A stretch of DNA of 64,000 nt from Buttiauxella gaviniae (GTDB lineage: Bacteria; Pseudomonadota; Gammaproteobacteria; Enterobacterales; Enterobacteriaceae). The translations under genes and the position numbers were made by a program. How positions within the stretch are numbered: the stretch's first letter is position 1; every line of letters starts with the position of its first letter. Positions 24,310 through 41,579 of the stretch are shown here, one piece after another. The stretch spans positions 2,976,001 to 3,040,000 of the forward strand of contig NZ_JBFMVT010000002.1 of the NCBI RefSeq assembly GCF_040786275.1, written 5' to 3'. The notes beneath the pieces are model-generated. The model was given only the letters and a program-made list of their open reading frames with translations. It ran no database searches and was not told the origin of the DNA.

Positions 24310-24928
24310 GTTTTACTAAAGGTGCCAGACGGGAAGACATCCAGTCGGCGATAAACGGTTGAGCATCGCTGTTCGGATGGATACCGTCATCCTGCATCCA
24401 TTGCGGTTTCAAATAGACCTCCTCCATAAAAAAGGGCAGCAGAGGAATAGAAAACTCTTTGGCAAGTTGCGGATAAATAGCGCTAAACGACTCATTATAA
24501 CGACGCCCGTAGTTTGCAGGCAGACGTATTTGCATAAGTAATGGTTGCGCGTTTGCCGCTTTCACGTCGTTGATTATCTGGCGCAAACTTTTTTCGATGG
24601 CCTGCGGCTGGAAACCGCGCAGACCATCGTTACCGCCAAGTTCAATTAATACCCAGCGAGGCTGATGCTGTTTCAGCAGCCCCGGTAAACGTGCCAGCCC
24701 TTGCGGCGCGGTGTCGCCACTGATACTGGCGTTCACGACTTTCGTTTTTTGTTGGTGCCATTTCGCATCCAGCAAGGCAGGCCAGGCCACTGTTGCCGAC
24801 ATCCGGTAACCGGCGCTCAGGCTATCGCCCAAAATCAACAACGTGTCCGCCCAGGCGGCGCGACAGGTCAATAAAGCCAGAAACAGGAAGGGCAAATGCC
24901 AGCGGAAAACATTGTTGAAGTTCATCAT
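24299..24928 (-). CDS. tesA: thioesterase I / lysophospholipase L1 TesA
   Basis: Periplasmic SGNH-hydrolase with thioesterase, lysophospholipase and arylesterase activity. 209 residues from MMNFNNVFRW, the same start as E. coli. The signal peptide ends near CRAAWA, with A-W-A as a possible cleavage site, next to the mature DTLLILGDSLSAGYR. Block I Ser is in GDSLS, block III is GGNDGLRG with the oxyanion Asn, and block V DDGIHPN holds the catalytic Asp and His. It is divergent from ybbA, and the two coding regions overlap by 33 bases at their 5' ends. Confidence 0.96.
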   Translation of the reverse strand: MMNFNNVFRWHLPFLFLALLTCRAAWADTLLILGDSLSAGYRMSATVAWPALLDAKWHQQKTKVVNASISGDTAPQGLARLPGLLKQHQPRWVLIELGGNDGLRGFQPQAIEKSLRQIINDVKAANAQPLLMQIRLPANYGRRYNESFSAIYPQLAKEFSIPLLPFFMEEVYLKPQWMQDDGIHPNSDAQPFIADWMSSRLAPLVKHDS

Positions 24929-25582
24929 CTTAGTAAGTCCGTAGGAACTGGGGAGCATCAGCTCTCCATCCTTACCGGAGTTGAGCTGGTTGTCAAACCG
25001 GCGCAGACCATTGCGTTAATCGGTGAGTCAGGTTCCGGAAAGTCTACACTACTGGCGATTCTGGCAGGGCTTGATGATGGCAGCGACGGGGAAGTTCACC
25101 TCTGCGGCCAGCCGTTACACAGCATGGATGAAGAAGCGCGGGCGGCGCTGCGGGCGAAAAATGTCGGCTTTGTATTCCAGTCGTTTATGTTAGTCCCCAC
25201 GCTCAACGCGCTGGAAAACGTTGAACTTCCGGCGCTGCTGCGCGGTGAAAACGATTCATCCAGCCGTGCGCAGGCCAAAGCATTGCTTGAGCAGCTTGGT
25301 TTAGGTCAACGCCTCGATCACCTTCCGGCGCAGCTTTCGGGTGGCGAACAGCAGCGTGTGGCTTTGGCTCGCGCCTTTAATGGCCGCCCTGGCGTTTTAT
25401 TTGCCGATGAACCTACCGGCAACCTCGACCGCCAGACCGGCGATCGCATCGCGGATCTCCTCTTCTCCTTGAATCGTGATTTTGCCACTACGCTCATCCT
25501 CGTCACGCACGATGAACAACTCGCCGCCCGCTGCGACCGTCGCCTGCGCCTGCGTGAAGGTAAATTGTGGGAGGAAGCATGA
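24896..25582 (+). CDS. ybbA: ABC exporter ATP-binding protein YbbA
   Basis: ATPase subunit of a MacB/LolD-type exporter, 228 residues as in E. coli. Walker A is GESGSGKST, the signature motif LSGGEQQRVALARA, Walker B VLFADEPTGNLD, and the switch His is in LVTHDEQLA. It starts inside the 5' end of divergent tesA, as in E. coli, and its stop overlaps ybbP by four bases (ATGA). With YbbP it forms a mechanotransmitter-like ABC system. E. coli YbbAP and periplasmic TesA have been proposed to work together on hydrophobic compounds. Confidence 0.95.
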   Translation: MPAENIVEVHHLSKSVGTGEHQLSILTGVELVVKPAQTIALIGESGSGKSTLLAILAGLDDGSDGEVHLCGQPLHSMDEEARAALRAKNVGFVFQSFMLVPTLNALENVELPALLRGENDSSSRAQAKALLEQLGLGQRLDHLPAQLSGGEQQRVALARAFNGRPGVLFADEPTGNLDRQTGDRIADLLFSLNRDFATTLILVTHDEQLAARCDRRLRLREGKLWEEA

Positions 25583-27993
25583 TTGCCCGCTGGTTCTGGC
25601 GTGAATGGCGCTCGCCATCGTTATTGATTGTCTGGCTGGCGTTGAGCCTGGCGGTGGCGTGCGTGCTGGCGCTGGGAAATATCAGCGACCGCATGGAACA
25701 AGGGCTCAACCAGCAAAGCCGCGACTTTATGGCGGGCGACCGCGCGTTGCGCAGCGCGCGCGAAGTGCCGCAAGAGTGGCTGGATCAGGCGAAAAAAGAG
25801 GGCCTGAAAGTCGGTAAACAACTGACCTTCGCCACCATGACGTTTGCCGGAGATACGCCGCAACTGGCATCGGTAAAAGCGGTCGATGGCGTTTACCCGA
25901 TGTACGGCGAGCTGGAAACGAGTCCACCGGGGCTAAAGCCTGAGCCGGGAAGCGTTCTGCTCGCCCCGCGTTTAATGGCGCTGCTCAATCTTAACGTCGG
26001 CGACACGCTTGATGTGGGCGACACCACATTACGCATTGCGGGCGAAGTGATTCAGGAACCGGACTCAGGGTTTAACCCGTTCCAGATGGCCCCGCGTTTA
26101 ATGATGAACCTGGCGGATGTGGAAAAAACCGGTGCAGTCCAGCCGGGGAGTCGCATCACCTGGCGCTATAAATTTGGCGGCACGCCGCAGCAGCTTGATA
26201 AGTATGAAAACTATCTTCTGCCTAAGCTAAAACCTGAACAGCGCTGGTACGGAATGGAGCAAGATGACGGCGCGCTGGGGAAATCTCTCGAACGCTCGCA
26301 ACAATTCCTTCTGCTTTCCGCACTGCTGACGCTGCTCCTGGCCGTTGCGGCGGTCGCGGTGGCGATGAACCACTACTGCCGCAGCCGCTACGATCTCGTC
26401 GCTATCCTGAAAACGCTGGGGGCAGGGCGAGCCGCGCTGCGCAAGCTGATTATCGGCCAGTGGCTGATGGTCCTGGCCCTTGCGGCAATTACAGGTGGAG
26501 CCGCCGGGCTGGTGTTTGAAGCGGTGCTGATGCGCCTGCTAAAACCGGTTCTGCCCGCGGCACTTCCACCCGCAAGCCTGTGGCCGTGGGTGTGGGCTGT
26601 CGGTTCGATGGTGGTGATTTCCCTGCTGGTGGGTTTACGCCCTTATCGTTTATTACTGGCAACGCAGCCGCTGCGCGTGTTGCGCCGGGATGCGGTGGCA
26701 AACGTCTGGCCGCTGAAAATCTACCTGCCGATTATCGCGATAGTGGTGGTGGCGCTGTTAGCCCTGCTAATGGGCGGAAGCACGCTCTTGTGGGCTGTGC
26801 TGGCTGGCACGGTGGTGCTGGCTGCGCTGTGTGGCGTTGTCGGTTGGGGCGTGCTGAAGCTGCTGAAAAAGTTGACGCTAAAAAACCTCGCGCTGCGCCT
26901 GGCGGTAAACCGACTGCTGCGCCAGCCCTGGTCAACGTTAAGCCAGCTTGCGGCGTTCTCGCTTTCCTTTATGTTGCTGGCGTTATTGCTGGTGCTGCGC
27001 GGCGATTTACTTGACCGCTGGCAGCAGCAACTTCCGCCGGAAAGCCCGAACTATTTCCTGCTGAACATCGCTACTGAACAAGTTCAGCCTGTGAAAGAGT
27101 TTTTGGCGGAACACCAGATTATCCCGGAATCCTTCTACCCGATTGTGCGCGTGCGCATGACGGCGATAAACGGTAAATCTACCGAAGGGAATCCAGACGA
27201 AGCGCTCAACCGCGAACTGAACCTGACATGGCAAAGCCAGAAGCCAACGCATAACCCAATCCTTGCAGGCACCTGGCCGCCAAAAGCGGGCGAAGTGTCG
27301 ATGGATGAAGGCGTGGCGAAACGCCTGAAGATTAAACTGGGCGATACCGTCACGTTTATGGGCGATACCCAGGATTTCTCGGCGAAAGTATCCAGCCTGC
27401 GCAAAGTCGACTGGGAAAGCCTGCGCCCGAACTTCTATTTCATCTTCCCGCCGGGCGCGCTGGATAATCAGCCGCAAAGCTGGCTGACCAGTTTCCATCT
27501 TGATGGAAAGAATGGCGTACTCACCCAGCTTAACCGCGAATTTCCAACTGTGAGTTTGCTGGATATTGGCGCGATTCTGCGGCAGGTCGGGCAGGTGCTG
27601 GAGCAGGTGAGCCGGGCGCTGGAAGTGATGGTCGTGTTGGTTACCGCTTGCGGAGTTTTGTTGCTGCTGGCGCAGGTTCAGGTCGGTATGCGGCAACGGC
27701 ATCAAGAACTGGTGGTCTACCGCACGCTGGGCGCAGGGAAACGCCTGCTGCGCACCACGCTATGGTGTGAGTTTGCGGTACTGGGGTTTGTATCCGGCCT
27801 GGTGGCGGCGATTGGCGCTGAAACGGCGCTTGGCCTGCTGCAAACCCGCGTGTTTGATTTCCCGTGGGAACCTGACTGGCGCTTATGGGTGATTCTGCCG
27901 CTCACGGGCGCGGTGCTGCTTTCGGTGTGCGGCGGGTGGCTGGGCGTACGCTTGCTAAAAGGTAAGGCGCTGTTCCGCCAGTTTGTGGCCTGA
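25579..27993 (+). CDS. ybbP: ABC exporter permease YbbP (FtsX/MacB type)
   Basis: Inner-membrane permease of 804 residues, equal to E. coli. The ATG at 25579 is chosen because of GGGAGG upstream and the ATGA overlap with ybbA. The first membrane helix (LLIVWLALSLAVACVLALG) is followed by a ~210-residue periplasmic domain, then three helices around residues 245-345. More helices near 385-480 give the doubled FtsX arrangement. A second periplasmic domain and a last FtsX-like helix set (from MVVLVTACGVLLLLAQ) end the protein. Its substrate is unknown. A REP and an ERIC follow. Confidence 0.95.
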   Translation: MIARWFWREWRSPSLLIVWLALSLAVACVLALGNISDRMEQGLNQQSRDFMAGDRALRSAREVPQEWLDQAKKEGLKVGKQLTFATMTFAGDTPQLASVKAVDGVYPMYGELETSPPGLKPEPGSVLLAPRLMALLNLNVGDTLDVGDTTLRIAGEVIQEPDSGFNPFQMAPRLMMNLADVEKTGAVQPGSRITWRYKFGGTPQQLDKYENYLLPKLKPEQRWYGMEQDDGALGKSLERSQQFLLLSALLTLLLAVAAVAVAMNHYCRSRYDLVAILKTLGAGRAALRKLIIGQWLMVLALAAITGGAAGLVFEAVLMRLLKPVLPAALPPASLWPWVWAVGSMVVISLLVGLRPYRLLLATQPLRVLRRDAVANVWPLKIYLPIIAIVVVALLALLMGGSTLLWAVLAGTVVLAALCGVVGWGVLKLLKKLTLKNLALRLAVNRLLRQPWSTLSQLAAFSLSFMLLALLLVLRGDLLDRWQQQLPPESPNYFLLNIATEQVQPVKEFLAEHQIIPESFYPIVRVRMTAINGKSTEGNPDEALNRELNLTWQSQKPTHNPILAGTWPPKAGEVSMDEGVAKRLKIKLGDTVTFMGDTQDFSAKVSSLRKVDWESLRPNFYFIFPPGALDNQPQSWLTSFHLDGKNGVLTQLNREFPTVSLLDIGAILRQVGQVLEQVSRALEVMVVLVTACGVLLLLAQVQVGMRQRHQELVVYRTLGAGKRLLRTTLWCEFAVLGFVSGLVAAIGAETALGLLQTRVFDFPWEPDWRLWVILPLTGAVLLSVCGGWLGVRLLKGKALFRQFVA

Positions 27994-28382: not shown

Positions 28383-28913
28383 ATGGCTAACGCCGATAGT
28401 AACACACACGCTCGCCCTGAAATCACCCCTCAACAGCCCGCATTTGCGGACAGCCTCGCAACCCTGCTAAAAAAACCACAGGGTGCAGCCCTGGATCTGT
28501 TCCAGACCCTCGATATTTGCCAGCAGTACGCAGATGGTTTGATCGGCAACGATAACCACATTGAATGTATGGCTCTATGCGGCCGCCTGCTTGCCGGGCT
28601 GGAAATATTGAAAAGCGTGCTGAAAGCGCCACTGCCAGATCACTTGATCGAGCAGCTAACGCTGAACGATCCCGCCGTTGATGAATACCGCAGCCCGCTT
28701 TCAATCGAATCCGAAACCCTGCGCGAATATTGCGTGGCATTAACCATTACGCTGCTAAACCACCAGGATCAGCCGGAGCAAAGAGAGCATATGATCGGGA
28801 TTCTGTATGAGATGATTTTTGTGCTGTCCGAAGATTTAAAAGCACCGAGATTTGTCCGAGGTTCGGGTGGGTTGAAGATGATCGGCGGCGAGGCTTTGCC
28901 AGGGATTCATTGA
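28383..28913 (+). CDS. unknown protein, 176 residues, with structured leader
   Basis: I do not recognise the family. The start is clear: AGGAG precedes the ATG by seven bases. The N-terminal 40 residues are polar and likely disordered (ANADSNTHARPEITPQQP). The rest is predicted mostly helical, with regions ALDLFQTLDICQQYADGLIG, ECMALCGRLLAGLEILKSVL and EHMIGILYEMIFVLSEDL. No signal peptide or membrane segment is visible. The acidic, helical make-up and the phage-like leader suggest a small regulatory or phage-derived protein, but this is inference. It is the first gene of the accessory block after ybbP and stands alone on its strand. Confidence 0.75.
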   Translation: MANADSNTHARPEITPQQPAFADSLATLLKKPQGAALDLFQTLDICQQYADGLIGNDNHIECMALCGRLLAGLEILKSVLKAPLPDHLIEQLTLNDPAVDEYRSPLSIESETLREYCVALTITLLNHQDQPEQREHMIGILYEMIFVLSEDLKAPRFVRGSGGLKMIGGEALPGIH

Positions 28914-29193: not shown

Positions 29194-29664
29194 TTAGTAG
29201 CCCACCGTGGTCACATGTAGGGGGACTTCTTTGAAATCCAGCACCGGAATATACCCGTTCCTGTCCATTTCACCTGATACCGGCTTGGGTAACGCCGTTC
29301 GGTTGGTGGCGTCCTTAAGAGCCTGGCAATAAGCAGGATCACCTCCTGCAGAAATATTGAGAAGAGTGCCATCTGGTTTAAAGCGCAGACGCATGCTGCA
29401 TACCTTCCCCTGATACTGTTCCGCTTCTGGCAATTCCGCCCGGATGGCTTTTCCCACGGAAACTCCAAATAAATAGGCTGGAACAGAAGGCGCGGGTTTT
29501 AAGGGAATGTGTCCAACCTCGCCATTTGATTTAGGGGGTTTCGTAAAATCCATGGGATCAGCTTTATACGGGGGGTACGAGCGTGAATGTGATCTATGAC
29601 ATCCTGATAATATGAACACAGATAATAAGGATACGGAAAGGAGTATAACTTTGTGATTTTTCAC
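29194..29664 (-). CDS. lipoprotein with a TolA C-terminal-like domain
   Basis: 156 residues. The N-terminus is a lipoprotein signal (ILLSVSLLSVFILSGC) with lipobox LSGC and acceptor Cys22. A Pro-rich linker follows (residues 28-62). Residues 66-150 align with domain III of TolA: QYQGKVCSMRLRFKPDGTLL against E. coli SYAGKTCTLRIKLAPDGMLL, then GGDPAYCQAL against GGDPALCQAA. The two Cys (89 and 113) match the TolA disulfide. The TolA inner-membrane anchor and long helical domain are absent. Real TolA-III binds TolB, group A colicins and the g3p of filamentous phage. A lipid-anchored copy might compete for these or modulate Tol; that is inference. Confidence 0.85.
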   Translation of the reverse strand: MKNHKVILLSVSLLSVFILSGCHRSHSRSYPPYKADPMDFTKPPKSNGEVGHIPLKPAPSVPAYLFGVSVGKAIRAELPEAEQYQGKVCSMRLRFKPDGTLLNISAGGDPAYCQALKDATNRTALPKPVSGEMDRNGYIPVLDFKEVPLHVTTVGY

Positions 29665-30131: not shown

Positions 30132-30473
30132 CTAAGCATTCTCTGTTTCTAAAATTCCGCCAAACATGCGCATATTGTTAAGTTTCTCGATGCTATAAGC
30201 CTTAGAAACCCATTGTTTATCGAACTCCTCTACACCAAACCTTTCGTGGTTTATCCCGTTAATTGCTATGACACAACCATTTGGGAGTTCAACCTGATAG
30301 TTAGGCCTAACACCAGTGCCTGACATCCCGATACGGATGAAAATATTTTTATCATTCGCTTTTACATCAGAAGGGCTTATTTTCACCTCAGCTAGCGTCC
30401 GGGCTTTTGACTTCATTTTTTCGAAGTGCTCCAACGGGATATCTCGGAAATTACCGTCCCATGACTTATCCAT
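30132..30473 (-). CDS. unknown protein, 113 residues
   Basis: Not recognised. The start at 30473 (MDKSWDGNF) is chosen for the GGAGG just upstream; the longer frame would need a TTG start. The sequence is soluble and mixed alpha/beta, with no signal peptide. The central strand-rich part is KNIFIRIGMSGTGVRPNYQV followed by ELPNGCVIAINGINHERFG. It is AT-rich compared with the housekeeping genes, which suggests transfer. It lies 52 bp downstream of the 178-residue gene on the same strand, so the two are probably one transcript and may act together. Confidence 0.65.
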   Translation of the reverse strand: MDKSWDGNFRDIPLEHFEKMKSKARTLAEVKISPSDVKANDKNIFIRIGMSGTGVRPNYQVELPNGCVIAINGINHERFGVEEFDKQWVSKAYSIEKLNNMRMFGGILETENA

Positions 30474-30525: not shown

Positions 30526-31062
30526 TTACGCCCGAATAATTATCTCTATACTTTCTTCAGAAACCTCATACTTTTTAGATAAAAGTATCTTAGCTTGCTG
30601 AATGGAGATTCCATCTGGATAAGATTCTTCTTTCTGTTCTATTTTTGGACTCTTGACATCAACATCAGGCATTTCATTGAAATTTAAATCATTTTCATCA
30701 ATACCTAAATCAGTTAATGATGAATAAGCAACAGGGTTTCTTGCTCCATCCCACATGTTTGGGTATGCAACCTTTGCATACTCACTAACTTTAATCAGCC
30801 ACCTGGTAGGACGCGAACCATCCCATTCGGGGGAAACGACCACATCGGAGATTTTGCCGATAAAAAATGCGTTTTTATGAGAGGCAGAAACACTTCCCCA
30901 GTCATCATTATGATTATCTGCAGGATCTCTGTTCTGTACACAGACTACATACTTGCAGCGAGAGGCGCGCTTCTCGCTTAGAACCCATGAGCCAGAACCT
31001 CCATCACTTAACAAACGGTCAAAACCACGTGCGGTAAAAACCACTACAGCCGAATCGTTCAT
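30526..31062 (-). CDS. unknown protein, 178 residues, possible PUA/EVE-like fold
   Basis: The start MNDSAVVVF at 31062 is preferred because AAGGAG lies six bases before it; the open frame upstream has no site and is hydrophobic AT-rich noise. Residues 1-95 contain GSGSWVLSEKRASRCKYVVC followed by AFFIGKISDVVVSPEWDG. This resembles EVE/ASCH-type small-ligand domains, as a guess from pattern. Then come RWLIKVSEYAKVAYPNMWDG and ARNPVAYSSLTDLGIDENDL, which I believe recur in a widespread uncharacterised family. The C-terminal ISIQQAKILLSKKYEVSEES-IEIIIRA looks like a separate small domain. It is AT-rich and probably acquired. Confidence 0.7.
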   Translation of the reverse strand: MNDSAVVVFTARGFDRLLSDGGSGSWVLSEKRASRCKYVVCVQNRDPADNHNDDWGSVSASHKNAFFIGKISDVVVSPEWDGSRPTRWLIKVSEYAKVAYPNMWDGARNPVAYSSLTDLGIDENDLNFNEMPDVDVKSPKIEQKEESYPDGISIQQAKILLSKKYEVSEESIEIIIRA

Positions 31063-31207
31063 GTGCATCTCCTTTGAAAGTATGAAGCACACTATATAGA
31101 CATAAAATACAAAGTCAATATAAGTATTAAAAAGTATGTGAAAGTATTTTAAAGAGTGGAACTGCAACTCTCTTAGCGAAATTGAATACTGTTATCATTT
31201 AACATAA

Positions 31208-31480: not shown

Positions 31481-32017
31481 TTAAGCAAGGTCGCCTTTTT
31501 GATAGGGCACACCGTACTCCCAGCGGGTTTCGAAGTGTTCCTGATAAAGTTTGATTACGCGCGGTACATGCCTGAGAACCAGAATATTTTCGCTATTGGC
31601 TCTCTCTGCGGTTGGGGTGTAGTTGAATGAACCTGTTTCGAGGATGCGGCCATCAACAATCATCACCTTGTCATGCTGAATGTGGTAATGGCTATCCACA
31701 CGAATGGCTACGCCGTGGCTTGTTGCATCCGTGACAGCGGCAAGTGAAAGTTTGTTGGCCTTGTTTGCCCGATGATCGATAACGACCGAAACTTTCACGC
31801 CACGCTCAGCCGCTTTATCAAGCGCTGCGGCAATGTCCGGGGCTTTAAACTCATAGGCCATCATTTCAATTGATTTATGAGCGCCATTAATCAGGTGTAA
31901 CACCATGGTTTGGGCTGAATGACCGTCTTTGCCGGATGAGAATCCAACTTCTACAGAAGGGGCGGCAGAAGCCGCGCCAGACAGGCAAATCAGCAACCCA
32001 CATAACAATTTACGCAT
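31481..32017 (-). CDS. nuc: periplasmic endonuclease of the phospholipase D family (Nuc type)
   Basis: 178 residues, with a signal peptide ending GAASA (about residue 18). It has one HKD motif, His115-x-Lys117-x4-Asp122 in HIQHDKVMIVDG, followed by ETGSFNYT. A single motif per chain is typical of Nuc, which works as a dimer. The start MRKLLCGLLICLSGAASAAPSVEVGFS closely follows Nuc of plasmid pKM101. Such nucleases sit in plasmid transfer regions and degrade single- and double-stranded DNA without sequence preference. Finding one beside selU suggests the block includes plasmid-derived DNA. It ends about 90 bp from the selU stop codon. Confidence 0.92.
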   Translation of the reverse strand: MRKLLCGLLICLSGAASAAPSVEVGFSSGKDGHSAQTMVLHLINGAHKSIEMMAYEFKAPDIAAALDKAAERGVKVSVVIDHRANKANKLSLAAVTDATSHGVAIRVDSHYHIQHDKVMIVDGRILETGSFNYTPTAERANSENILVLRHVPRVIKLYQEHFETRWEYGVPYQKGDLA

Positions 32018-32108: not shown

Positions 32109-33224
32109 CTATTTTGCCTGGTTAAATTTGGTATTGCTTCGCAGCCAAGCTTCCACCTGCTGGTAATCGCCGCGAAACACAATGTTGTCTGCTTTTTTGC
32201 TTAACTGATAGCGGTACATCGGGTCGTAATACTCTTCGAGCAGCGGCGCGAGCCAGGCGAGGTGCCCGTCAACGGAACCGGTTTTACGCTGCAATGCCAG
32301 CGCTTCATCCAGACGCGCGGTGAACTGCGCAAAACGTTCCATTCCCAGACGGCGGCGAATGGCGAACAGGCCGTGATGGAGATATTCACCGTAGTTTTGC
32401 CACGCCGTTTCTTCATCGTGCACCGATAAAAATGCGGCGCTCATCTGCTCAAAATATTCAGTTTTAAGGCGCTCTAAACGCTGGTCGAACGGATCGTCAA
32501 TTACCACAATCGGTGAGCGTAACATCTGTTCCCGGAAGCATTCCGGAATATGGCGCGAGCCAATCATCCTGCCTTCATCTTCAATAACCCAGGTCACTTC
32601 TTCGCCTTCACTTTTCTTTAAAAGCGTTACGGCCAGGTTATTTTCAAAGTTAGTTTGCGAGGGCTGTTCCACAATGGTGCGGCCAAATGATGAACCGCGA
32701 TGGTGCGCCAGCCCTTCAAGGTCAACACCGGTTGGCAGCGAGCGAATCAAAATGGTTTTGCCCCCGCCGGTGTTGCCGCTGACGAGGATCATCGGCCAGC
32801 GCGAGCGGGATTCAATCACGTCCATCGCGTAGTGGCGCAGCGCTTTATAGCCGCCTTCGACCAGCGGGTAGTCAACGCCTGCTTCGCGCAGCCATTCCTG
32901 AACGAGGTGCGAACGCATGCCGCCCCGAGCACAACAAAGGTATCCGTGAGGATTCTGGCGACATTGTTCAAGCCACTTCTGCAAACGGGCTTCGCGGATT
33001 TCGCCATTGACCAGGCTATGGCCCAATGCCACCGCCGCCTGTTGCCCACGCTGTTTGTAGCAAGTCCCCACGGCGGCACGCTCGTCATCAGACATCAGCG
33101 GTAAATTCAGCGCGGCAGGCATCGCCCCCTGGCTAAATTCAACCGGAGCACGCACGTCGATAAGCGGGATATCGGCGCGCAGCAGATGTTCATAATTTTG
33201 AGTATCAGGGCGAGCGTTTTGCAT
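32109..33224 (-). CDS. selU: tRNA 2-selenouridine/geranyl-2-thiouridine synthase
   Basis: Replaces sulfur by selenium in the wobble 2-thiouridine of some tRNAs, through a geranylated intermediate (also named MnmH/YbbB). 371 residues. The N-terminal rhodanese domain (1-130) has the active-site region [12 protein letters not shown], with Cys97-Cys98. A P-loop domain follows with SGNTGGGKT at 149-157. [21 protein letters not shown] near the C-terminus is almost identical to E. coli. In E. coli this gene also borders a variable region next to ybbP (rhsD), so the junction is a known insertion spot. Confidence 0.95.
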
Positions 33225-40527: not shown

Positions 40528-40550
40528 AAAACGGGTGCTAAAAGCACCCG
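40528..40550 (-). terminator. hairpin between ahpC and ahpF
   Basis: CGGGTGCT/AGCACCCG with a three-base loop, followed on the minus strand by TTTTATG. It probably lets only part of the ahpC transcript continue into ahpF. The flanking 160 bp also hold imperfect inverted sequence (AAACATCATCATGCAAG and CTTGAATCATGGTGTTT) resembling decayed ERIC ends. Confidence 0.6.
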
Positions 40551-40602
40551 CATTTGCACTTAAATTTCCAACGTACCTGCAACTTGAAAGACGACGGGTA
40601 GG

Positions 40603-41166
40603 TTAGATTTTACCGACCAGGTCCAGAGACGGAGCCAGAGTCGCGTCGCCTTCTTTCCATTTAGCCGGGCAAACTTCACCTGGGTGAGAAGCCACGTACT
40701 GAGCCGCTTTCACTTTACGCAGCAGGTCAGATGCGTCACGGCCAATGCCTTCCGCAGTCACTTCGATAGCCTGGATGATGCCCTGTGGATCAACGATAAA
40801 GGTACCGCGGTCTGCCAGACCCTGGTCTTCACGCATGTTTTCGAAGTTACGGGTCAGGGCGCCAGTTGGGTCGCCGATCATCGCGTATTTGATTTTCGCG
40901 ATGGTTTCAGAGCTGCTGTGCCACGCTTTGTGGGTGAAATGGGTGTCGGTGGAAACAGAGTAGATATCCACGCCCAGTTTCTGGAATTCTTCGTAGTGGT
41001 CAGCCACATCGCCCAGTTCAGTTGGGCATACAAAAGTGAAGTCAGCCGGGTAGAAGAAGAAAACGCTCCAGCGACCTTCTACGTCCTGCTCAGTAACTTC
41101 AATGAACTCACCGTTTTTAAAAGCGCTGTTTTTGAATGGTTTGATTTTTGTATTAATTAAAGACAT
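40603..41166 (-). CDS. ahpC: alkyl hydroperoxide reductase subunit C
   Basis: 2-Cys peroxiredoxin that destroys hydrogen peroxide and organic peroxides. 187 residues as in E. coli. Peroxidatic Cys47 is in [10 protein letters not shown], resolving Cys166 in GEVCPAKW. The tail DLVGKI is the usual end. AGGAGG lies upstream of the ATG. An OxyR-like set of quarter sites about 10 bp apart (ATAG at 41215, ATGG at 41225, and weaker ones at 41235 and 41246) lies about 50-80 bp upstream, as expected for a gene of the OxyR regulon; the match is only moderate. Confidence 0.97.
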
Positions 41167-41280
41167 TTGTACTTCCTCCGTTTTGCGATGGGAGAAAGGT
41201 ACCGAATATTATTGATAGTCTCTAATGGGTAAGATGTATTGAATTGATAAGCGTTTCCTTACAACCGAAACGGCAGACAT

Positions 41281-41307
41281 AAAAAAAGCCACCCGTTGCG
41301 GGGTGGC
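41281..41307 (-). terminator. orphan rho-independent terminator upstream of ahpC
   Basis: On the minus strand GCCACCC/GGGTGGC forms a stem followed by seven T residues. It is about 115 bp upstream of ahpC and points toward it, yet no gene precedes it on that strand. The 41167-41579 gap otherwise holds the ahpC and opgB promoter regions and a palindrome GCGTTTAAACGC. A seven-codon frame MDYQNHR (41431-41408, minus) lies upstream of the hairpin. It could end a short RNA or attenuate an upstream start. Confidence 0.75.
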
Positions 41308-41579
41308 CTCTGTTTGTTGCGCGTTACAATTCCACTTTAAAAAATCATAACAGCGGCGGGATTAAATCACCGATGCGCCGCACGGGTCAATCTGCGCAAT
41401 CGTTGTATTAACGATGGTTCTGATAGTCCATAACTATTAATGACTCTCTACTAATGCGTTTAAACGCGTACAATTCCGAAATGCTGCACACTTTCATGTC
41501 AGAGAAATTGCAGGAATGTGACAACAACGTTAGATTTATCCCTCAGAAATTCCTGAGCACTTATTTCGAGGGTTAGGCG

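What the first reader, a model, noticed from the sequence alone, without database searches (positions are those of the whole stretch)
29194..29664. Stand-alone lipoprotein carrying a TolA domain III
TolA domain III is the docking site for group A colicins and filamentous phage. Here that fold, including its Cys pair, is attached to a lipobox and a Pro-rich linker rather than to TolA's membrane anchor. It lies in an accessory block. A decoy that blocks colicin or phage entry, or a Tol modulator, is a reasonable idea that I have not seen established for this gene.
Basis: inference. Interest (0 to 1): 0.7.

Follow-up and report, generated by a model that had tools for sequence, protein, structure and literature searches.

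The report
Free-standing TolA-tip lipoprotein on mobile DNA
The gene makes a small lipid-anchored copy of the tip of TolA, the handle that many bacteriocins and filamentous phages grab to enter cells; relatives of the same build sit on prophages and plasmids of gut bacteria, where they may serve as decoys, but this has not been tested.

Summary
Window 29194-29664 (-) encodes a 156-aa protein with signal peptide, lipobox (LSGC, then His), a linker and a TolA domain III with both cysteines (Pfam E 7.9e-12). The predicted fold's five matches with E <= 0.001 are all TolA-III, among them the colicin A and g3p complexes. It lies in a 4.1-kb accessory block between ybbP and selU, which are next to each other in 6 of 11 sibling genomes.
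It is not unique: it is a divergent member of a family of TolA-III lipoproteins that annotation calls "TolA" or leaves without function. A lipobox is found in 64 of 68 distinct short frames (41 after thinning at 90%), none with Asp at +2. Two types occur in 882 and 1266 of 5426 E. coli genomes; copies lie on prophages near the lysis genes and on plasmids.
Best reading: a motorless, membrane-anchored TolA-III that binds TolA-directed bacteriocins and filamentous phage and blocks uptake. Main rival: it competes for TolB and tunes Tol-Pal. Binding, location and protection are inferred. My literature searches listed no paper on such a gene. New variant of a known kind.

The parts
29194..29664 (-). 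CDS of the TolA-III lipoprotein, 156 aa, GTG start
29602..29664 (-). signal peptide, residues 1-21, ending in lipobox LSG
   Evidence: sequence; same build in 64 of 68 distinct short frames
29599..29601 (-). lipobox Cys22; next residue His, not Asp
   Evidence: that Asp at +2 means inner-membrane retention is recalled
29482..29598 (-). linker, residues 23-61, mostly without predicted structure
   Evidence: pLDDT < 50 up to residue 58
29230..29481 (-). TolA domain III, residues 62-145
29398..29400 (-). Cys89, first cysteine of the TolA-III pair
29326..29328 (-). Cys113, second cysteine of the pair
29230..29241 (-). strand 3, L142-D-F-K145, aligned with TolA D418-K420 (TolB, colicin N and g3p site)
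   Evidence: for the match; PMC4339652 passages for the site
29197..29229 (-). C-terminal tail, residues 146-156, not present in the 12 other members of alignment A1
24896..27993 (+). ybbA and ybbP homologues, left border of the accessory block
   Evidence: (ybbP: FtsX); gene names recalled
28383..28913 (+). block gene, 176 aa, no Pfam, NCBIfam, PHROG or PADLOC hit
30132..30473 (-). block gene, unknown (only a weak PHROG match, E 0.04)
30526..31167 (-). block gene, PHROG 37247 (E 2.6e-34), no known function
31481..32017 (-). PLD-type nuclease with a signal-peptide-like start, 49% identical to plasmid Nuc
   Evidence: relic of its C-terminal end in sibling L198
32109..33224 (-). selU (ybbB), right border of the block
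   Evidence: (rhodanese); gene name recalled

Best explanation
The gene makes a small lipoprotein that puts a TolA domain III in the periplasm on a lipid anchor, probably at the outer membrane. It has neither TolA's inner-membrane segment (TolQR coupling) nor its periplasm-spanning helix, so it cannot pass on force. TolA-directed ligands, that is group A bacteriocins and the g3p of filamentous phage, bind it at the same strands as TolA, are not pulled in, and uptake falls. The family is carried by prophages and plasmids as a cargo gene that protects the carrier cell. Shown here: domain, lipobox, cysteine pair, kept binding strand, presence on mobile DNA, purifying selection in the phage types. 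Inferred: outer-membrane location, ligand binding, protection.
For: TolA-III by sequence and predicted fold. Lipobox in 64 of 68 distinct short frames, +2 residue never Asp (41 of 41 after thinning). Positions aligned with TolA D418 and K420, where proline abolishes binding of g3p-N1, colicin N and TolB (PMC4339652 passages), hold no proline in 47 stand-alone rows (3 and 7 of them gaps there) and are D and K in the window copy; both cysteines are kept in 46 of 47, the exception being the TonB part of a fusion that was aligned in place of its TolA part. Annotated phage copies lie between an antiterminator and the lysis genes or just upstream of lysis genes; of 40 viral loci with type A, 37 hold an antiterminator-type match and 34 a lysozyme or holin match. 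882 and 1266 of 5426 E. coli genomes match types A and B; 325 of 72,556 plasmids match the Klebsiella form, 289 over at least 80%. dN/dS is 0.25-0.72 for A (14 of 15 pairs; one pair identical) and 0.10-0.23 for B (10 of 10). A sibling-species lipoprotein joins TonB_C (2.8e-10) and TolA-III (6e-29). Precedent: periplasmic pIII-N1 is thought to sequester TolA and gives colicin A resistance and a 4-log drop in phage uptake (PMC10424213 passages); the T5 lipoprotein Llp blocks infection by binding FhuA from the periplasm (PMC9586334 abstract).
Against: No binding or sensitivity data. No gene annotated as bacteriocin or its immunity around the copies examined (many neighbours are 'hypothetical'). 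PADLOC: no hit for the window protein, P0002, P0007 or P0005. Among 50,697 phage records only one, mEp460_ev081, matched the window protein or type B, so carriage is mainly known from prophages and plasmids. The site by the lysis genes also fits a late, lysis-linked role. A 10-of-12 promoter match upstream of the mEp460 copy recurs in 2 of 10 upstream regions, both of that same type, so expression in lysogens is not shown. The window copy has no close relative, no promoter-like site just upstream (5 in the block, 5.9 expected) and no visible helix before strand 3.
Confidence: 0.45

Rival explanations
1. Tol-Pal modulator: the domain binds TolB (or CpoB) and competes with TolA, which loosens the outer membrane, raises vesiculation or helps cell lysis late in the phage cycle; any colicin tolerance is a by-product.
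For: TolB, g3p and colicin N share strand 3 (PMC4339652 passages; PMC7391070 passages), and that strand is kept. Annotated prophage copies lie upstream of lysis genes. The C-terminal helix that TolB displaces in P. aeruginosa TolA-III (PMC7391070 passages) is not seen in the model of the window copy, so its TolB site may be always open.
Against: TolA-III binds TolB weakly, Kd about 40-200 uM (PMC7391070 passages). Two chromosomal copies among genes that I read by eye as housekeeping (L086, L091) and plasmid copies do not fit a lysis role. A B-type copy lies next to what I read by eye as gtr- and umuC-like genes, with no lysis gene recognised in the stretch (L164).
Confidence: 0.3
2. The window copy is a drifting orphan: real family, but this gene no longer works.
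For: No close homologue in 11 sibling genomes; one of the long end branches of the tree (1.9 changes per column); Y and F of the helix before strand 3 are D and G (37 of 47 rows keep both); decay in the block's surroundings: PLD relic in sibling L198.
Against: Open frame intact; lipobox, cysteines, Gly-Asp and strand 3 kept; a plausible ribosome site read by eye.
Confidence: 0.15
3. Helper of the mobile element itself, for example anchoring a conjugation or phage-exit machine to Tol-Pal.
For: Of 325 plasmids that match the Klebsiella form 245 are typed conjugative; Tol-Pal spans the envelope.
Against: Annotated neighbours on the plasmids examined are IS elements, a DUF1778-GNAT pair and, in some, a thioredoxin-fold gene, not transfer genes; chromosomal copies exist.
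Confidence: 0.07

Closest known systems
TolA, domain III (PF06519; PDB 3QDP, 3QDR, 2X9A, 1TOL)
   Same: Domain sequence, fold, cysteine pair, strand 3 LDFK
   Different: No inner-membrane TolA-I, no long helical TolA-II; lipid anchor instead; the helix signature before strand 3 is missing in the window copy
PHROG 5772 (unknown function; top matches are type B lipoproteins)
   Same: E 2e-15 over the domain of the window protein; lipobox + linker + TolA-III in type B
   Different: Type B has an N-terminal Cys-containing motif (CHKTTATGSC in P0007) that the window copy lacks
Type A lipoprotein of phage mEp460_ev081 (VUF53968.1, annotated TolA protein) and E. coli prophage 'tolA'
   Same: Same three-part build
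   Different: 26-30% identity to the window copy over the alignment; phage setting
T5 Llp superinfection-exclusion lipoprotein
   Same: Small phage lipoprotein in the periplasm that blocks an entry route (PMC9586334 abstract)
   Different: Llp jams the receptor FhuA; the proposed protein would mimic TolA. Works alike at most, no shared family claimed
Phage TonB_C protein of 108 aa (L138 16544-16867)
   Same: Small phage-coded tip of an energy transducer
   Different: TonB_C, another Pfam family (the two folds are related); not tested for a lipobox

Membership tests
TolA C-terminal domain (PF06519) | Score above Pfam gathering cut-off | tested here: met
   45.7 bits, cut-off 25
TolA C-terminal domain (PF06519) | TolA-III fold | tested here: met
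   Foldseek E 5.5e-07 to 3qdp; all five hits with E <= 0.001 are TolA-III; the helix before strand 3 is absent in the model and that part is of low confidence
TolA C-terminal domain (PF06519) | Cysteine pair | tested here: met
   Cys89 and Cys113 align with the TolA pair
Full TolA (TIGR02794, NF007065) | Equivalog cut-off and three-domain build | tested here: not met
   37.4 against 59.45 bits and 48.2 against 213 bits; 156 aa with lipobox
Bacterial lipoprotein | Signal peptide with lipobox | tested here: met
   LSGC at residues 19-22, read from sequence; pattern scan; no lipoprotein predictor was used
Bacterial lipoprotein | Lipidation and outer-membrane sorting | not testable with these tools
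   needs lipid labelling and fractionation
Stand-alone TolA-III lipoprotein family (this report) | Short ORF, lipobox, linker, TolA-III | tested here: met
Stand-alone TolA-III lipoprotein family (this report) | Common descent of stand-alone copies apart from TolA | tested here: inconclusive
   3 label changes against 25.7 in shuffles; one clade of stand-alone rows not rejected (p-AU 0.65), nor the window copy with its host's TolA subgroup (p-AU 0.644)
Superinfection-exclusion lipoprotein | Blocks phage or colicin entry | not testable with these tools
   bench test needed
Anti-phage defence gene (PADLOC) | Match to a known model | tested here: not met
   0 families for the window protein

The most novel reading that the evidence does not exclude
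Mobile elements of Enterobacterales carry a general class of lipid-anchored or free, motorless tips of the Tol and Ton machines (TolA-III alone, TonB-C alone, and one TonB-C plus TolA-III fusion) that capture bacteriocins and phages which use those machines: decoy immunity at the level of the energy transducer instead of the receptor or the toxin. The window copy, in whose model the helix that TolB must displace is absent, could be a form with a permanently open binding strand.
Probability: 0.3. Interest if true: 0.85.

Novelty: new variant of a known kind. Interest (0 to 1): 0.62.

Why it matters
About one complete E. coli genome in six (type A, 882 of 5426) to nearly one in four (type B, 1266 of 5426) holds such a gene (the collection is weighted to much-sequenced strains), in many records labelled 'tolA', so strains are listed with extra tolA genes whose products lack TolA's motor contact. 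If they are decoys, they would explain part of strain-to-strain tolerance to group A colicins and filamentous phage, give PHROG 5772 a function, and offer a simple test: move one gene into E. coli K-12 and measure colicin and phage sensitivity.

Tried and rejected
Close relatives of the window copy: none confirmed in genome contigs (70 pattern matches, 0 confirmed) or viral contigs (9 and 0); these scans find close relatives only. The 11 sibling genomes hold full TolA; three also hold other short TolA-III frames elsewhere (G006, G008, G004), none close to the window's.

Defence or colicin neighbourhood: in the block PADLOC gave hits only for the PLD nuclease (best DrmC, 2.2e-14); as it has a signal-peptide-like start and is 49% identical to plasmid Nuc, I read it as Nuc-like, not DISARM.

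Many independent captures of TolA tips: the tree needs only 3 label changes, so this is not supported; the origin of the window copy is open.

Own promoter for all phage copies: not supported, 2 of 10 upstream regions.

Thioredoxin-fold partner on Klebsiella plasmids: adjacent in L036 and L217, absent in L215 and L216, so not obligate. H5 (L218) has a match without an annotated gene; not pursued.

TonB-C plus TolA-III fusion elsewhere: 295 genomes searched (G008 itself not among the rows shown); listed rows that covered both parts were TolA-length frames (428 and 445 aa); the list was cut, so rarity is not proven.

Host naming: one plasmid search gave matches of about 79-80% to Enterobacteriaceae; genus left unnamed.

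Rows dropped before counts: one search set aside 41 frames over 260 aa and one contig-edge row (L018); of the 4 without lipobox, L012 and L081 look like TolA fragments, L183 is short, L096 is a different secreted build. The 64 are distinct as stop-to-stop frames; 61 differ from the lipobox on and 41 remain after thinning at 90%. Searches left out L012, L018, L042, L081 and L183 and thinned near-identical rows from 101 to 81 (47 stand-alone, 33 TolA, 1 other); one search left out five further long rows. The row without the cysteine pair is L052, where the TonB part of the fusion was aligned. In one search, L124 and L138 are identical, so type A values repeat.

Full report
1. The gene. Window 29194-29664 (-) is an open frame of 156 codons with a GTG start. 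Residues 1-22 form a signal peptide ending in LSGC; His follows the cysteine. Residues 23-61 are a linker, largely without predicted structure, and residues 62-145 a TolA domain III (PF06519, 45.7 bits, cut-off 25; PDB TolA-III chains from 1.3e-11). The AlphaFold2 model, made from 13 sequences, has mean pLDDT 61; block means in the domain are 76 to 92 up to residue 130, then 56 and 59 for residues 131-150. Foldseek's five hits with E <= 0.001 are 3qdp, 3qdr (colicin A complex), 2x9a and 1tol (with g3p) and 1s62. The full-TolA equivalog models are not met. The host has a normal TolA elsewhere.

2. The place. The gene lies in a 4.1-kb block between ybbP (ends 27993) and selU (32109-33224). In 11 sibling genomes, six have the two genes within about 210 bp of each other (L200, L201, L202, L205, L207, L208), two carry other cargo (L198, L203), and in three ybbP is not within the 13 kb read (L199, L204, L206). 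L198 keeps a relic of the C-terminal end of the block's PLD nuclease. The other block genes are a Nuc-like PLD nuclease (49% to plasmid Nuc), a PHROG 37247 protein and two unknowns. No sibling has a close relative of this gene, but three of the 11 carry other short TolA-III frames at other places: G006 (L091, lipoprotein), G008 (L097, TonB-TolA fusion lipoprotein) and G004 (L096, secreted, no lipobox).

3. The family. Searches from the window protein reached lipoproteins of the same three-part build on phage mEp460_ev081 (the only match among 50,697 phage records), in prophage-like DNA of a Salmonella plasmid record, and on Klebsiella plasmids. A profile search of 392 genomes of the family gave 297 with a match, TolA itself included; its 17 best-scoring rows all have frames of 131-187 aa. 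Among the loci held, 64 of 68 distinct short frames carry a lipobox; the +2 residue is Thr 33, Ala 13, Ser 6, Val 6, Gln 2, His 1, Asn 1, Gly 1, Leu 1, never Asp. Thinned at 90% identity 41 remain, again none with Asp. By the Lol rule (recalled) this predicts outer-membrane sorting.

4. Two phage types. mEp460_ev081 carries two such genes in a row: type A (40533-40961, annotated TolA protein) and type B (41112-41507, 'hypothetical'), between the Q antiterminator and the lysozyme. By DNA, type A is in 882 of 5426 complete E. coli genomes (944 of 946 places on chromosomes; 877 genomes with at least 80% of the query) and type B in 1266 of 5426 (1260 with at least 80%; 822 chromosomal and 536 plasmid places). 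The plasmid hits listed include 92-94-kb plasmids of O157:H7 strains, which I did not fetch. Of 40 viral loci with type A, 37 hold an antiterminator-type match (a DUF1133 protein counted as one, from recall), 34 a lysozyme or holin match (many contigs end early) and 26 a type B gene. In E. coli FDAARGOS_1283 the type A gene follows an OmpC-type porin and two tRNA genes, and a TonB_C protein of 108 aa follows the lysis genes. A type B copy in L164 stands near genes that I read by eye as gtr- and umuC-like at a prophage end, so the lysis-gene site is not the only one.

5. Plasmids. The Klebsiella form matches 325 of 72,556 plasmid records, 289 over at least 80% of the query. Neighbours in the stretches examined are IS elements, a DUF1778-GNAT pair (three of four) and, in two of four, a thioredoxin-fold gene. 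In L036 a HEPN-nuclease gene, an AAA-ATPase gene and an McrC-family gene lie within about 8 kb. The IncL/M copy (L034) lies beside a TonB-dependent receptor gene. I do not build on single contexts.

6. Selection. Nei-Gojobori dN/dS is 0.25-0.72 for type A (14 of 15 pairs; one pair is identical, so values repeat; the 0.72 pair differs at few sites) and 0.10-0.23 for type B (10 pairs; several dS values exceed 1 and are rough). These genes are kept as proteins. The test could not be made for the window copy, which has no close relative.

7. Binding surface. In E. coli TolA, proline at D418 or K420 in strand 3 abolishes binding of g3p-N1, colicin N and TolB; colicin A binds another strand (PMC4339652, passages; PMC7391070, passages). 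In 47 stand-alone rows the D418 position is D 32, N 5, E 5, T 1, S 1, gap 3, and the K420 position is K 16, R 16, Q 3, H 2, D 1, M 1, V 1, gap 7: no proline at either (one row, L052, is the TonB part of the fusion). The window copy keeps D, F and K. Of the 47 rows 37 keep both Y and F of the helix before strand 3; the window copy has D and G, and L095 also lacks both. The window model shows no helix there. In P. [quoted passage not shown] a copy without it might hold the strand open. That is inference from a low-confidence stretch (pLDDT 56).

8. Mechanism. A lipid-anchored TolA-III has no TolQR contact and cannot pass force. Ligands that must be pulled by TolA would be held. Precedents: periplasmic pIII-N1, the mirror image of this set-up, is thought to sequester TolA and gives resistance to colicin A and a 4-log fall in phage uptake (PMC10424213 passages; a changed deoxycholate response is reported with it); and T5 Llp is a small periplasmic lipoprotein that blocks infection by binding the entry protein (PMC9586334 abstract). 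[quoted passage not shown] The rival, that the protein competes for TolB and tunes the envelope, uses the same strand and cannot be told apart by sequence. The two may also act together.

9. Fusion. In a sibling species (G008, L097 7789-8499) a lipoprotein of 237 aa carries TonB_C (40.9 bits, cut-off 24.6) followed by TolA-III (100.5 bits). A protein with the two tips that group B and group A colicins use is the strongest hint of a decoy role. One example only.

10. Descent. Stand-alone and TolA rows are well separated (3 label changes against 25.7 in shuffles), but 93 columns do not settle it: one clade of stand-alone rows is not rejected (p-AU 0.65), nor is the window copy with its own host's TolA subgroup (p-AU 0.644).

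11. Literature. Nine of the ten searches bore on this gene or on TolA-III (one search was on Llp and Cor). None of the titles or abstract starts listed is about a stand-alone TolA-III lipoprotein. The library holds open-licence papers only, and most listed papers were not opened. Seen: passages of PMC7391070, PMC4339652, PMC10424213, PMC8928145 and PMC10666116, the outline with abstract of PMC9586334, and a term search of PMC7066135 without a hit. No whole paper was read.

Noticed in passing
L097 7789-8499 (G008, same genus): Lipoprotein with TonB_C and TolA-III in tandem, in a region with other small lipoprotein-like ORFs
   Followed up: partly
L138 16544-16867: Phage-coded TonB_C protein of 108 aa just after the lysis genes of an E. 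coli prophage
   Followed up: partly
window 31481-32017: PLD nuclease, 49% to plasmid Nuc; a relic of its end is left in sibling L198 11804-11986
   Followed up: partly
window 30526-31167: PHROG 37247 protein; its only matches (E <= 1e-5) among 50,697 phage records are two large Brevundimonas phages at 29% identity
   Followed up: no
L096 8594-9241 (G004, same genus): 216-aa secreted protein with an unknown Cys-containing front part and a C-terminal TolA-III, no lipobox: a second stand-alone build
   Followed up: no
L036 7223-7771 and L217 3406-3954: Thioredoxin-fold gene directly upstream of the Klebsiella plasmid TolA-III lipoprotein; missing in L215 and L216
   Followed up: partly
L036 2319-2819 and 12414-15874: HEPN-nuclease, AAA-ATPase and McrC-family genes within about 8 kb of the plasmid TolA-III lipoprotein
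   Followed up: no
L034 5842-8318: TolA-III lipoprotein next to a TonB-dependent receptor gene between two IS26 copies on an IncL/M plasmid
   Followed up: no
records listed: Automatic annotation names these short lipoproteins 'tolA: cell envelope integrity protein TolA', which inflates tolA copy numbers
   Followed up: yes
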